Notes under the pieces: generated by a model
Seen by the model: the letters and a program-made list of their open reading frames with translations, nothing else
Told to the model about the DNA's origin: nothing
The model's database searches: none
Origin: Formosa agariphila KMM 3901
GTDB taxonomy: Bacteria; Bacteroidota; Bacteroidia; Flavobacteriales; Flavobacteriaceae
Reading direction: 5' to 3'
Assembly (NCBI RefSeq): GCF_000723205.1
Contig: NZ_HG315671.1
Location: 1,833,351 to 1,897,350, forward strand
Length of the DNA: 64,000 nt
Shown here: positions 1,001 to 25,781 of the stretch, one piece after another
Position numbering within the stretch: the stretch's first letter is position 1
Layout: every line of letters starts with the position of its first letter
Made by a program: the position numbers and the translations under genes

Positions 1001-1133
1001 ACACAACAATGTGTATAAGCAATAGCGGTTTGAGTGTTAACTCGAACCGTTTTTCCGTATAATTTAAGTATATTTCAATCCGAAAAGTAGTCGCTTAAAA
1101 TCCGCTGCTGCTCATACACGAGACCGTTAGCAA
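1001..1133 (+). repeat. attC-like imperfect palindrome between genes
   Basis: The arms GTGTATAAGCA (from 1011) and TGCTCATACAC (to 1119) are imperfect inverted copies, continued inward by AGCGG/CCGCT. The right end carries CCGTTAGCA, which recurs as CCGTTGGCA at 2981. Size, terminal AAC/GTT and position between two single genes resemble integron attC sites. No integrase gene lies in the window, so 'attC-like' describes structure only. Confidence 0.55.
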
Positions 1134-1612: not shown

Positions 1613-1670
1613 ACCGAATTAAAAAACTATTGCTAACAAAGTACTGTGGTAAAAAACAAGTAAAAAAGCA

Positions 1671-2642
1671 TTAACTTTTCACTAAAGTACTTCGATAAGA
1701 ATCATCATATATTAAACCAGATTTTGCGATAGCAAAAGCCTGTTTTAGAAGCTTATTACACACAGCTATTAAAGCTAGTTTTTTACTCTTCCCTTTTGCT
1801 ACAATTCGTTCATAAATATCTCTGCATGCTTTGTTGTATTTACAGGCATTAAAACTGCACATAAATAATAAATTACGAAGCTTTTGATTTCCTATTTTAC
1901 TTATTCTACTACGTCCATTTACACTGCTACCACTCTTTCTAACTACAGGAGTTAATCCAGCATAACTGCAGAGTTCACTACCGCTTGTAAAACGCTCAAA
2001 ACCATCCGTAAGAACCACAAGCATCAATGCCGTTTTATTTCCAATTCCTGGTATGCTTTTTAAGCGAGTTAATACATCCTGGTGGACTTCTTTAACTAAT
2101 ACCATCAGTTTATCTTCTAAAGTTTTGATTTCTTTTAAAACGTGTTTTAAGCTTCGTTTAATAGAACTTACAACTGCTTTGCTAGGATTTCCTAAAACGG
2201 CTTCACCATGTATTTTATTCTTCAGCATAGTGCTCTGTTTTGTATACACAGAAAGGAGTCTGGTCATTTGAAGACATTCTGTTTGATGTTTGGATTGACC
2301 TTCCCAAAGCTTTAAATCTACTTGTTTTGCATATTCACAAATAAGTTTAGAATCACTCTTATCGGTCTTGATCTTAGACAACTTCATCTGGATAAAGCGT
2401 TTAACAGCTAAAGGGTTTTCTACTGATACTTTTATCCCTAATTCTAGTAAATAATAGGCCAATTGATAGTGGTAGTATCCCGTGGCTTCCATAACACAAT
2501 GACTATCCAAATCTAAGAGTTTTGTCAATTTTTTAAAGCCAGAAATTGTGTTTTTAAATTGGTAGTAATTGCCATCTGAATCTGTCACATCAAAAACTAA
2601 ATGGCTAATATCAATTCCAAAATATTTAATATCTTTATTCAT
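1671..2642 (-). CDS. IS110-family transposase (DEDD recombinase)
   Basis: 323 residues, normal length for the family. The N-terminal RuvC-like DEDD domain shows FGIDIS (first Asp), VMEATGYY (Glu) and KTDKSDSKLI (last two Asp). The C-terminal Transposase_20 domain shows the helix-hairpin-helix-like IPGIGNKTA and the serine-bearing GSSVNGRSRISKIGN. Known family members excise as circles and recombine at a dinucleotide core guided by a bridge RNA. The gene appears intact, so the element may be active. The ATG at 2642 is the natural start, with the long non-coding end directly upstream. Confidence 0.93.
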   Translation of the reverse strand: MNKDIKYFGIDISHLVFDVTDSDGNYYQFKNTISGFKKLTKLLDLDSHCVMEATGYYHYQLAYYLLELGIKVSVENPLAVKRFIQMKLSKIKTDKSDSKLICEYAKQVDLKLWEGQSKHQTECLQMTRLLSVYTKQSTMLKNKIHGEAVLGNPSKAVVSSIKRSLKHVLKEIKTLEDKLMVLVKEVHQDVLTRLKSIPGIGNKTALMLVVLTDGFERFTSGSELCSYAGLTPVVRKSGSSVNGRSRISKIGNQKLRNLLFMCSFNACKYNKACRDIYERIVAKGKSKKLALIAVCNKLLKQAFAIAKSGLIYDDSYRSTLVKS

Positions 2643-2659
2643 AAGAAAATGATTTTTGA

Positions 2660-2812
2660 AAGGACGACTACGCGAGTTTCAACGACTTAAAATCGAGGTC
2701 TAAAAGCCTCATAGAACTGTACGAAATCTGTGTAGTAAAAGAGAGGGGATTTTCAATGTTGACGAGATCTGTAGTCTCTCCGTATATAATAACCTTATTC
2801 CTCTCTTTTGTT
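2660..2812 (-). ncRNA. Candidate bridge RNA of the IS110 element
   Basis: Non-coding DNA upstream of the transposase, read on its strand, folds into two loops. The target-type loop is closed by a perfect 10-base stem (2737-2746 with 2800-2809) with an inner GAGA/TCTC hairpin; its 5' side holds 2780-2790, identical over 11 bases to target flank 2866-2876, which abuts the core. Its 3' side (2754-2763) can pair at 7 of 10 positions with the other flank (1632-1641). The donor-type loop has stems 2667-2671/2732-2736 and 2675-2680/2723-2729 and an inner hairpin 2695-2698/2707-2710; 2713-2720 matches the element end 1640-1647 at 7 of 8. Known IS110 biology supports the role. The RNA ends are guesses. 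Confidence 0.75.
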
Positions 2813-2865
2813 CTTTCTAATTTATAGGTATTAATTTAGTGTTTTTATTAAAATGCTAACTTAAG

Positions 2866-2988
2866 CCGTATATAATTTATTGCTTGGTTCTAGCTTACTT
2901 ACGAAAATCCTCGCGGATTTTCTATTCGGTTTGTATTTGTTAACTTAGTTGCTTAACCACGCAACAAACCATATACAAAACCGTTGGC
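2866..2988 (+). repeat. attC-like palindrome, left arm split by the IS110 element
   Basis: With the IS removed, the left arm is 1632-1641 plus 2866-2889 (34 bases) and the right arm is 2955-2988 (34 bases). The reverse complement of the right arm aligns to the left arm without gaps: GCTAAC against GCCAAC, GTATAT in both, TTGC in both, TGGTT in both. The centre is AT-rich with a local hairpin, AAATCCtcGCGGATTTT-like, near 2915-2930. The outer GCTAAC/GTTGGC pair plays the place of attC core boxes. No integrase is visible. Confidence 0.65.
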
Positions 2989-3035
2989 AACAATTTTGAC
3001 CCGTCCTGAATAAAGGCTACATAATTTTAAACATT

Positions 3036-3407
3036 ATGTACAAAAATGACAAAGTAATCAGACGGTATTCAGAACCTTTCAAACTGAAAATTTTAGCCGA
3101 ACTTACAACCGGTAAACACACAAAGAGCGAACTTTGTAAACTCTACTCCATTGCTCCTACAACGGTCAACGAGTGGATTAAAAAGTACAATCGTAAAGAT
3201 CTAATGAACACCAGAGTAAAAGTGGAAACAAAAGACGAAATATCTAGAATTAAAGCACTTCAAAAAGAGATTGAACAGCTTAAAAAACTACTGATTAAAA
3301 AGGATTTAGATACTTTGGTATTAGATTCATACCTTGAGGTAGCAGCCGAAGACTTAGGCTATAAATCGGTTGCTGAACTAAAAAAAAAGCTAAGTATAAA
3401 GCCTTAA
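3036..3407 (+). CDS. IS3-family transposase OrfA (DNA-binding part)
   Basis: 123 residues. Residues ~8-50 form a helix-turn-helix that binds the terminal repeats (FKLKILAELTTGKHTKSELCKLY, then TTVNEWIKKY). Residues ~72-95 form a leucine zipper-like coiled coil (ISRIKALQKEIEQLKKLL). It ends in a run of nine A (3380-3388) inside the last codons; a -1 slip there enters the OrfB frame, producing the OrfAB transposase as in other IS3 elements. Confidence 0.88.
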   Translation: MYKNDKVIRRYSEPFKLKILAELTTGKHTKSELCKLYSIAPTTVNEWIKKYNRKDLMNTRVKVETKDEISRIKALQKEIEQLKKLLIKKDLDTLVLDSYLEVAAEDLGYKSVAELKKKLSIKP

Positions 3408-4258
3408 TTAAAGCCAAAGAGAAATCCAAGGGATTTACATCTTTAACAACTATAACACGTTGTTTTGGACTTAAACGTGATGCGTATTATAAATACAAAT
3501 CTAGAGCTGATAAGCGGTTAATACAGGAACAACAAATTATAAAAATAGTCAGTAGAAAACGTAAATCCCTTCCTAGAGAAGGTGTGCGTAAACTCATTAG
3601 ATCGTTAGACAATGAGTTTTACAAAGCCAATCTTAAAGTCGGCAGAGACTCTTTATTTAGCGTACTTAGAAAGTATAATATGCTTACACTAAGAAAGAAA
3701 ACCAGTGCCAGAACTACAAACTCTTATCATCGTTTTTATAAATACAATAACCTGATAAAAGATATGGAAATTACAAGGCCAAATCAGGTGTGGGTAAGCG
3801 ATATTACCTACATAAGAACCATTAAAGGATTTTGTTACTTAGCACTAATAACAGATATGTATTCTAGGAAAATCGTAGGATATGACCTAAGTGATAGCCT
3901 AGAATTAAAAGGATGTGTCAGAGCTTTAAACAAAGCTATATATCAAGCTAAAAACACAAAGAAACTTGTACATCACTCCGATAGAGGCATACAGTATTGT
4001 AGCAATGTATACACGCAAATATTAAAAAGAAAAAAGATAGATATTAGTATGACTGAAGAAAATCATTGTTACGAAAATGCTATGGCAGAGCGGGTAAATG
4101 GCATACTAAAAGATGAATTCTATCTTGACCAAACCTTTGATAACGTGGCGCACGCCAAGAGAGCTACAAAAAATGCAATTAATCTATACAACGAAATAAG
4201 ATTACATTTATCTTTAGATTATAAAACACCTAATATGGTATATAAATTATCAGCTTAA
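3377..4258 (+). CDS. IS3-family transposase OrfB (DDE catalytic part)
   Basis: The OrfB frame is open from 3377 (after TGA at 3374), overlaps the end of OrfA and lacks a good start codon; the GTG at 3584 is internal. The rve integrase core shows all three acidic residues: Asp in VWVSDITYI, Asp in HHSDRGIQY, and Glu in ENAMAERVNGILKDE. An HTH_21-like segment precedes it (PREGVRKLIRSLDNE). It is expected to be made mainly as the OrfAB fusion through the nine-A run at 3380-3388. It appears intact. Confidence 0.88.
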   Translation, partial: TKKKAKYKALIKAKEKSKGFTSLTTITRCFGLKRDAYYKYKSRADKRLIQEQQIIKIVSRKRKSLPREGVRKLIRSLDNEFYKANLKVGRDSLFSVLRKYNMLTLRKKTSARTTNSYHRFYKYNNLIKDMEITRPNQVWVSDITYIRTIKGFCYLALITDMYSRKIVGYDLSDSLELKGCVRALNKAIYQAKNTKKLVHHSDRGIQYCSNVYTQILKRKKIDISMTEENHCYENAMAERVNGILKDEFYLDQTFDNVAHAKRATKNAINLYNEIRLHLSLDYKTPNMVYKLSA

Positions 4259-4324
4259 AAACAATTTTAACCTGTAGCCATATTTCAGGACAAGACATAC
4301 GAAAAATCCAATTCCAAATAAAAA

Positions 4325-5194: not shown

Positions 5195-5269
5195 AGTACT
5201 GTGGTAAAAATCAAGTAAAAAAGCATTAACTTTTCATAAAATAACTTCCATAGACATCATTTGTATATT
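5195..5269 (-). pseudogene. Relic of a second IS110-type element (3' end only)
   Basis: 5195-5241 repeats the end of the intact element at 1640-1686 almost perfectly, and similarity fades by about 5269. The translation on the minus strand still resembles the last residues of the transposase but has diverged. The flank GCATAACAA before the AG core (5195-5196) resembles GCTAACAA at the first insertion, so both elements used the same kind of site in the same orientation. The rest of the element is gone; an IR of nine bases (5281-5289/5300-5308) follows in otherwise featureless DNA up to 5454. Confidence 0.75.
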
Positions 5270-5454
5270 AAACATGTTGTTATTTTCACGGTATTCAGGG
5301 TGAAAATAGCGTATTAAACACACGATATTTGTAGCGAATCACAAAGAGGAAGTACGTTAAAAGCGCTGTTACAGTTAAAAAGGCGTAGGTAGCATGAATA
5401 CCTCGTACGAATGGGGTTATTAATCCAAATAATGTGCTTCAATACAAAATCAAT

Positions 5455-25630: not shown

Positions 25631-25702
25631 TATAATTAATTTTAAGAGACTATAGTAGCAAATAAGTAGAAAGATGAGTTAACATGTGTTCCAAGTAATT
25701 GG

Positions 25703-25768
25703 CTTATCTATTTAGCACCTTGCTCGTTATTGCAGGTTGCTATCTCTTGTCTTGAGATTCTTGATAAT
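25703..25768 (-). promoter_or_regulatory. SAM-riboswitch-like leader, shortened (lacks inner P2 and P4)
   Basis: On the minus strand the conserved S-box pieces occur in order: TTATCAAGA, AGCAACC, AAGGTGCTAAAT, GATAAG. P1 pairs 25763-25767 with 25704-25708. P2 is only ATCTC/GAGAT (25754-25758 with 25742-25746) with a seven-base loop; the kink-turn and GGCCC-type pseudoknot part of SAM-I is absent. P3 pairs ACC-TGC with GCA-A-GGT (25732-25737 with 25717-25723). P4 is absent. A CCAA/TTGG hairpin follows. It could be a reduced active variant or a decayed one. Confidence 0.65.
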
Positions 25769-25781
25769 TATTTTAAGGGCG

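What the first reader, a model, noticed from the sequence alone, without database searches (positions are those of the whole stretch)
1640..2876. IS110 element whose presumed bridge RNA visibly matches its own target and donor
Seen: 11 bases (2780-2790) inside the transposase-upstream non-coding end are identical to 2866-2876, the flank touching the AG/CT core at 2864-2865. The opposite loop strand (2754-2763) can pair at 7 of 10 positions with the other flank (1632-1641). 2713-2720 matches the element end 1640-1647 at 7 of 8, and a neighbouring segment shares CTTAA with the other end. The two loops are closed by stems including a perfect 10-base one. Known: IS110 elements use bridge RNAs with target and donor loops. 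Inference: an intact, self-consistent guide whose target is an attC-like palindrome.
Basis: partly seen in the sequence, partly recalled or inferred. Interest (0 to 1): 0.8.

Follow-up and report, generated by a model that had tools for sequence, protein, structure and literature searches.

The report
RNA-guided transposon aimed at gene-cassette sites
A small jumping gene, found in flavobacteria and their relatives, carries its own guide RNA, and among dozens of related copies the guide changes together with the landing site, which is usually the recombination site of a little-described gene-cassette system.

Summary
Window 1639-2865 (-) is an intact IS110-family element: a 323-aa DEDD/serine recombinase and a 223-nt upstream non-coding end that folds as a two-loop bridge RNA. 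The fold shows covariation over 39 homologous ends. The left target guide follows the left flank at 8 positions (58 distinct guide-flank pairs, 0 of 5000 shuffles as good). Three altered right guides match their own altered flanks. The target is usually one arm of an attC-like palindrome in cassette arrays led by a tyrosine recombinase that lacks the IntI-specific stretch; such sites occur in 103 of 120 genomes of the window's family. An insertion inside an ABC-transporter gene shows that sequence, not hairpin shape, is read. Two orthologous unoccupied cassettes and 81 unoccupied sites elsewhere lack it, so the element enters between N9 and TGTTG without a shared core dinucleotide, unlike IS621. 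New variant of a known kind; transcription and activity are untested.

The parts
1639..2865 (-). IS110-family element, 1227 bp, reads CTTAAG...AGTACTT in transposase orientation
   Evidence: orthologous unoccupied cassette in L187 joins 1638 to 2866 exactly; second pair L215/L003; 3 full copies in own genome share both ends, a fourth lacks its first 16 nt
1671..2642 (-). IS110 recombinase, 323 aa (DEDD RuvC + Tnp domain)
   Evidence: PF01548 and PF02371, NF033542 195.5 bits over cut-off 140, IS621 8wt6 E 2e-34 with the D, E, D, D and S columns kept
2658..2817 (-). predicted bridge RNA
   Evidence: consensus fold with covariation over 39 homologous ends
2810..2817 (-). outer stem, 5' arm (3' arm 2658-2665)
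   Evidence: 94.7% of cells paired, no compensatory pair; absent from the RNAalifold consensus: weakest helix
2800..2809 (-). target-loop stem, 5' arm (3' arm 2737-2746)
   Evidence: 99.0% paired, 3 pairs with changes on both sides
2781..2788 (-). left target guide TATATACG (target positions 1-8)
   Evidence: follows the left flank over 58 distinct pairs
2764..2778 (-). hairpin between the two target guides
   Evidence: 3 of 4 pairs with compensatory changes
2757..2761 (-). right target guide CAACA (target positions 10-14)
   Evidence: co-changes with the right flank in L064, L118-L120 and L128
2732..2735 (-). donor-loop stem, 5' arm (3' arm 2668-2671)
   Evidence: 97.4% paired, one compensatory cell
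2713..2720 (-). left donor guide ACAGTTCT
   Evidence: ACAG, TCAG and TTAG variants follow the element's right end
2695..2710 (-). hairpin between the two donor guides
   Evidence: 100% paired, 13 both-side changes at one pair
2686..2692 (-). right donor guide TTTTAAG, can pair with CTTAAG of the left end
   Evidence: sequence; near-invariant column block, so no covariation test
2681..2685 (-). handshake-type guide TCGTT facing target positions 9-5 after exchange
   Evidence: nt 2 and nt 4 covary with target positions 8 and 6
1628..1637 (+). R'' end of the cassette, TATTGCTAAC; complements the cassette's own start GTTAGCAATA at 1126-1135
2866..2990 (+). rest of the interrupted attC-like site: L'' 2868-2883, L' 2961-2976, R' GTTGGCAA 2983-2990
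   Evidence: R1 121 bits, but this site is also in the model's seed; arm covariation
1009..1133 (+). neighbouring unoccupied attC-like site, not in the model's seed
   Evidence: R1 72.2 bits; AACA|ATGTGTATAAGC with no AAG
5195..5273 (-). solo right-end remnant of a related copy, also at an R''-like end
   Evidence: 85% identity to element nt 1149-1226

Best explanation
The element is a bridge-RNA-guided IS110 recombinase system. The RNA's first loop reads a 14-nt target: 8 nt on the left (bottom strand) by the left target guide, one free nucleotide, then TGTTG on the right (top strand) by the right target guide. The second loop reads the abutted circle junction in the same 8+1+5 layout: ACAGTACT, T, CTTAA. 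The top strands are exchanged between positions 9 and 10, helped by nucleotides after the right donor guide that pair with the incoming target strand. The whole element (CTTAAG...AGTACTT) is placed between N9 and TGTTG without duplication and without a shared core. In this family that target is usually the R''-L'' gap of attC-like sites in cassette arrays. Shown by sequence comparison: element ends, RNA fold, guide-target and left guide-donor covariation, site identity. Inferred: transcription, circle form, order of cuts, and the handshake step (by analogy with IS621).
For: guide and handshake covariation; RNA fold; unoccupied sites, exact borders; insertion inside an ABC-transporter gene: with the element and its AAG removed the frame reads LSGGQQQRVTIARAL, and the two flanks fall on adjacent ABC_tran profile positions 114 and 115; target is attC-like, in cassette arrays; right flank TTGTT in 62 of 69 records; 10 remaining guide-perfect sites in the own genome, wobble allowed, against 1 for the reversed control, 4 of the 10 at attC-like sites; all three intact copies sit at sites of this class; catalytic residues as in IS621; TAAGTTTG, a TAnnTTTG-type -7 box, exact in 23 of 68 left ends, and a TTG-type box 20 nt upstream across the abutted ends in 17 of the 20 right ends that the script caught.
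Against: No RNA or transposition data. Single-sequence folding of the RNA is no better than shuffles (z -0.21). L126 fits poorly (left guide 5 of 8, right flank CTTAT against CAACA), and L073 and L124 are tandem copies whose right flank is another left end. In L055 and L071 the right guide is interrupted by a palindromic insert. L085, the clearest insertion outside attC, matches the left guide at only 6 of 8. The shuffles do not correct for relatedness; among 11 guide classes the own flank is the best match in 4, tied-best in 5 and not best in 2. Pairing at position 9 with the handshake guide is at chance, and position 7 cannot be tested. The own element's left donor guide has one mismatch (T for A, donor position 6), and its right target guide is followed by UU facing donor TT. 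Six of the ten guide-perfect sites left in the own genome are not attC-like and are unoccupied.
Confidence: 0.88

Rival explanations
1. The element recognises the folded attC hairpin (single-stranded DNA shape), and the guide match is a by-product of both being AT-rich palindromes.
For: Most insertions are in attC-like sites (41 of 57 loci tested show the cassette signature), and the bottom strand folds lower than the top strand in all four sites tested.
Against: L085 lies inside an ABC-transporter gene and L098 inside an open frame that begins with a TPR match, both with partial-to-good guide matches; L064 matches an altered target with an altered right guide; L128 has both guides re-written and, read by eye, sits in the other arm; the guide covaries position by position.
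Confidence: 0.06
2. Standard IS621-like insertion at a CT core: occupied sites were a subset of attC sites that already held AAG.
For: CT/AG stands at both borders, as in IS621; the CT core is strongly preferred in IS621 (PMC11208160, passages).
Against: Two orthologous unoccupied cassettes lack AAG; of 81 unoccupied sites in 18 other genomes 80 read AACA, one CACA, none AACAAAG; 0 of 25 unoccupied own-genome sites hold AAG; tandem copies read AGTACTTCTTAAG.
Confidence: 0.06
3. The co-variation only reflects shared ancestry of element and host arrays, not RNA-DNA pairing.
For: Related hosts carry related attC arms and related elements; shuffles here are not tree-aware, and own flanks are only tied-best in 5 and not best in 2 of 11 guide classes.
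Against: Agreement stops sharply at positions -1 and -10; the differences between guide and flank in the own genome's copies are of the G.U type; all three unusual right-guide types match their own flanks; the ABC-gene insertion keeps a match.
Confidence: 0.05

Closest known systems
IS621 (IS110 group) and ISCro4
   Same: DEDD plus serine recombinase of about 325 aa (protein match); for IS621, bridge RNA in the left end with target loop then donor loop, left guide reading the bottom strand and right guide the top strand, 14-nt target with the top-strand cut between positions 9 and 10, handshake covariation (PMC11208160, PMC11208158, passages).
   Different: No CT core shared by target and donor; the left target guide stops at position 8 and does not cover the core; the right target guide is followed by UU facing positions 9 and 8; target is an attC-like site. 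IS621 targets REP sequences (title of a reference seen).
ISEc21 (IS110 family, seekRNA)
   Same: Non-coding region upstream of tnp, bottom-strand match before top-strand match, insertion without target duplication and circle with abutted ends (PMC11187229, passages).
   Different: ISEc21 targets a site within IS3-family transposase genes; a donor-reading loop was not mentioned in the passages seen.
IS1111-attC elements (ISKpn4, ISPst6)
   Same: RNA-guided DEDD elements that insert at one end of attC sites of integron cassettes (PMC11187229, passages).
   Different: IS1111 type has sub-terminal inverted repeats and a downstream non-coding region with reversed guide order; here the long non-coding end is upstream.
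Integrons (IntI/attC)
   Same: Same-strand cassette arrays beside a tyrosine recombinase; palindromic sites; cassette start complements its own R'' end.
   Different: Recombinase lacks the IntI-specific stretch and scores below the integron-integrase cut-off; R' is GTTR plus cassette-specific bases, not GTTRRRY. IntegronFinder 2.0 names Salinibacter ruber as the one complete integron in Bacteroidetes proper (PMC9024848, passage); Bacteroidota is listed elsewhere among phyla with integrons, without detail (PMC8618304, PMC9668308, passages).

Membership tests
IS110 family, IS110 group | DEDD_Tnp_IS110 and Transposase_20 domains | tested here: met
   NF033542 over cut-off
IS110 family, IS110 group | long non-coding end upstream of tnp | tested here: met
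   223 nt upstream, 32 nt downstream of the coding frame
IS110 family, IS110 group | bridge RNA with target and donor loops that pair with target and donor | tested here: met
   covariation of fold and guides; the RNA itself not observed
IS110 family, IS110 group | circular intermediate with promoter across the abutted ends | not testable with these tools
   only a fitting TTG / TAAGTTTG arrangement seen
IS621-type bridge-RNA system | core dinucleotide (CT) shared by target and donor and read by both guides of each loop | tested here: not met
   unoccupied sites lack it; position -1 of the left guide at chance
IS621-type bridge-RNA system | handshake guides covarying with the non-cognate DNA | tested here: met
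   target positions 8 and 6; shuffles not tree-aware, position 9 at chance
IS1111-attC group | non-coding region downstream of tnp | tested here: not met
IS1111-attC group | sub-terminal inverted repeats of 11-13 bp | tested here: inconclusive
   none seen by eye in the terminal 20 nt; no formal scan
Integron (for the target system) | integrase with IntI-specific additional domain | tested here: not met
   17 residues stand where TIGR02249 has 59 positions; 199.7 bits against cut-off 265
Integron (for the target system) | same-strand array of palindromic sites beside the integrase | tested here: met
   128 of 128 site matches on the integrase strand, in 20 of 21 integrase loci
Integron (for the target system) | attC with RYYYAAC / GTTRRRY boxes and bottom-strand hairpin | tested here: inconclusive
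   AAC/GTT kept, GTTRRRY not; bottom strand folded lower in 4 of 4 sites by 1 to 4 kcal/mol
Integron (for the target system) | recombination of sites by the integrase | not testable with these tools
   same cassette found in another genus in a new setting is only indirect

The most novel reading that the evidence does not exclude
Flavobacteria carry a widespread integron-like cassette system run by a XerA-like recombinase without the IntI domain, and a bridge-RNA IS110 lineage has specialised on it: its guide tracks each host's attC arm, has been rewritten at least once to the opposite arm (L128), and recombines without any shared core dinucleotide, so that exchange depends only on guide and handshake pairing.
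Probability: 0.5. Interest if true: 0.8.

Novelty: new variant of a known kind. Interest (0 to 1): 0.62.

Why it matters
If insertion really needs no core shared by donor and target, the main fixed sequence of bridge-RNA recombinases (the CT core of IS621) is not universal, and this lineage is a natural candidate for core-free programming. The family also offers a natural record of guide evolution: dozens of guides with their targets, including rewritten pairs. The target points to a cassette system in flavobacteria that the integron surveys seen here do not describe.

Tried and rejected
Rfam over the window at gathering thresholds: no bridge-RNA family matched, one SAM riboswitch. Search for guide-like sites with a CT core built in (TATAYACGNCTTTGTT, 2 mismatches): no excess over the reversed control (37 against 51); this first hint against a CT core was understood only later. 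Integron integrase model in the own genome: no match over the cut-off (the same loose search also rings in all 14 control genomes), but the best match led to the array. Polaribacter phage P12002L, whose attC2 was shown to recombine with IntI1 (PMC9892861, passages): no match to our site model, so that experiment does not bear on these sites. Three filled loci were searched for orthologous unoccupied cassettes in 397 genomes each: the window and L003 gave one site each; L002 gave none with an intact site, and two further relatives of the L003 cassette (L216, L217) carry no such site. Structure prediction was not run. The host family is unnamed in the tool; I take it to be Flavobacteriaceae from the names of the closest carriers.

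Rows dropped: of 79 fetched homologue loci, L082, L105-L108 and L127 (partial matches at contig ends) were left out; L051, L053, L066, L088, L095 and L109 had no recognisable left end; L072 no guide; L113, L116, L119 and L120 too little left flank, leaving 65 of 76 records. The fold used 39 of 53 distinct non-coding ends. The site model used 35 of the 43 sites with an R' box, out of 64 examined. One search used 30 of 32 distinct own-genome matches. One search used 82 of 128 matches; one of the 82 was itself occupied. In one search the right-end pattern caught only 20 of 68 records. In one search seven right ends mis-caught by a pattern were replaced by hand.

Full report
What was checked. The open reading frame 2642-1671 (-), 323 aa, is an IS110 recombinase: PF01548 and PF02371, NF033542 above its cut-off, and IS621 (8wt6, E 2e-34) and ISCro4 (9t56) as solved relatives with the DEDD and serine columns kept (residues named in PMC11208158, passages).

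Copies in the genome. The own chromosome (4.23 Mb, unnamed) holds three full copies with identical non-coding ends, one copy lacking its first 16 nt, and four solo right ends. The flanks of the full copies are TATATACGG, TATACACGT and TATACACGT on the left and, after the terminal CTT, TGTTA, TGTTA and TGTTG on the right. Within the 8 guide positions the only difference is a T-to-C change that leaves a U.G pair, so all three score 8 of 8. All eight copies and remnants lie in, or within 3 kb of, the clusters of attC-like sites found later.

Homologues and the guide test. Seventy-nine loci were fetched from named genomes, mostly of genera I know as Flavobacteriaceae. Left flanks and left guides could be paired in 65 of 76 records (58 distinct pairs, 27 guides). 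Over positions -9 to -2 the mean identity is 6.98 of 8, or 7.24 with G.U pairs, against 5.58 (sd 0.12) and 6.13 when flanks are shuffled; 0 of 5000 shuffles reach the observed value. Positions -1, -10 and -11 are at chance. Among 11 guide classes the own flank is the best in 4, tied-best in 5 and not best in 2. The shuffles do not correct for relatedness. The right guide is CAACA in 59 of 69 records and was not read in 5. It is CACCA in L064, where the flank is TGGTG; AAACA in L118-L120, where it is TGTTT; and UUUUC in L128, where it is GAAAA. Read by eye, L128 sits in the opposite arm of its palindrome. L126 fits neither side well, and L073 and L124 are tandem copies.

RNA structure. A consensus fold of 39 distinct non-coding ends has a target-loop stem, a hairpin between the guides, a donor-loop stem and a second hairpin. 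On a structure of 29 pairs that I named, outer stem included, 97.8% of cells are paired against 93.7% after shuffling; 58 cells have changes on both sides against 17.9; sliding the partners by 1 to 3 columns leaves 1 to 6 such cells; the number of further pair types is not above the shuffles. The minimum-energy fold of the single window RNA is not unusual (z -0.21). The left donor guide has ACAG, TCAG and TTAG forms that follow the right end of the element, with single-base exceptions in L076 and L094 and an A/T mismatch at donor position 6 in the window's own group. Nucleotides just after the right donor guide covary with target positions 8 (11 of 5000 shuffles as good) and 6 (0 of 5000), while position 9 is at chance and position 7 cannot be tested (43 distinct pairs). 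This corresponds to the handshake guides of IS621 (PMC11208158, passages).

Borders and core. Of 30 attC-like sites examined in the own genome, 5 are occupied by left ends; the other 25 have no AAG at the place of insertion, and 19 of them read AACA|N. Of 81 unoccupied sites in 18 other genomes 80 read AACA and one CACA. The window's own cassette occurs at 98% identity in another genus with the site unoccupied, and there the sequence up to 1638 is joined directly to that from 2866. The cassette of copy L003 gives the same result at 88% identity. L085 interrupts an ABC-transporter gene; with the element and its AAG removed the frame reads LSGGQQQRVTIARAL, and the two flanks fall on adjacent profile positions 114 and 115 of ABC_tran. 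L098 lies in a 177-aa open frame whose left piece matches TPR repeats and whose right piece matches nothing. The element is therefore 1639-2865, its CTT ends are its own, and target and donor share no core dinucleotide at positions 8-9. Read on the 14-nt scale of IS621, both loops have the layout 8 + 1 + 5, with the exchange after position 9. That target duplication is not characteristic of either family was already argued by others (PMC11187229, passage); the absence of a shared core is the point that differs from IS621.

The target system. At 43 of 64 sites with enough flank, an R'-like CGTTR box lies 75-150 nt from the border. The arms of 35 sites pair with strong covariation: 76 cells changed on both sides against 23.6, score 0.375 against 0.107. 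The 10-mer at the cassette's end finds its complement, with at most one mismatch, within 3.5 kb in 41 of 57 loci, against 118 of 1140 when 10-mers are swapped between loci; in 32 of the 41 the complement ends in AACG, as a site start should. A covariance model of the site finds 30 sites in the own genome, mostly in a few same-strand clusters, sites in 103 of 120 genomes of its family and in 42 of 198 genomes drawn from its phylum. One cluster begins at a 376-aa tyrosine recombinase (P0001). It passes the XerA/integron-integrase model NF040815 (227.4 against 220), fails the integron integrase model (199.7 against 265), and has 17 residues where that model has 59 positions. Relatives at E <= 1e-60 occur in 58 of 120 family genomes. 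Of 21 such loci examined (the own one and 20 that I chose), 20 have the sites downstream, and all 128 matches are on the recombinase's strand; the remaining locus is only 2.5 kb long. E-values of the site model are rough, and it was built from sites found through the IS element.

What is in print. The library holds the IS621 and seekRNA papers, and IS1111 elements that target attC are known. Searches listed no paper on a bridge-RNA element aimed at cassette sites of flavobacteria, nor on an integron-like system of this kind there; only open-licence PubMed Central papers are held, and in five of the seven searches more papers matched than were listed. One survey names Salinibacter ruber as the one complete integron in Bacteroidetes proper (PMC9024848, passage); two other papers list Bacteroidota among phyla with integrons (passages).

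Mechanism and limits. The most likely cycle is excision to a circle with abutted ends, which would create a flavobacterial promoter (TTG-type box, 20 nt, TAAGTTTG; -7 consensus TAnnTTTG in PMC9723704, passage; the upstream box is recalled), transcription of the bridge RNA, and re-insertion at sites read by both guides. Only sequence evidence supports this. Guide specificity in the own genome is high: ten perfect sites, wobble allowed, remain unoccupied against one for the reversed control, and four of the ten are attC-like.

Noticed in passing
L047:13639-14769 (-) with array L047:8983-13523; same type in L166-L185: Integron-like cassette arrays led by a XerA-like tyrosine recombinase with an N-terminal extension of about 100 aa and no IntI-specific stretch; widespread in the window's family.
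   Followed up: partly
window 3001-4300: A two-frame insertion sequence that looks like the IS3 type (frames 3036-3407 and 3584-4258; named by eye, no family search) inserted a few bases after the R' box of the interrupted site; L091 shows the same CCGTCCTGAATAAAGG end just after its R' box.
   Followed up: no
L005, L006, L007 (window 5195-5273), L008; L161:7399 and L160:2185: Solo right ends and, before two attC-like sites, what look like left ends of IS110 elements: copies seem often to decay to one end.
   Followed up: no
L055 and L071, target loop: The right target guide is interrupted by a TCCCGAAGC(C/T)TCGGGA palindrome, a small palindromic insert inside a bridge RNA.
   Followed up: no
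L073, L124: Tandem IS110 copies with junction CTTCTTAAG, possibly the same as the natural abutted circle junction.
   Followed up: no
window 25675-25772 (-): SAM-I/IV riboswitch (RF01725, 59 bits).
   Followed up: no
L207-L213: Seven viral contigs hold an exact match to the unoccupied attC-like arm pattern, so phages may carry such cassettes.
   Followed up: no
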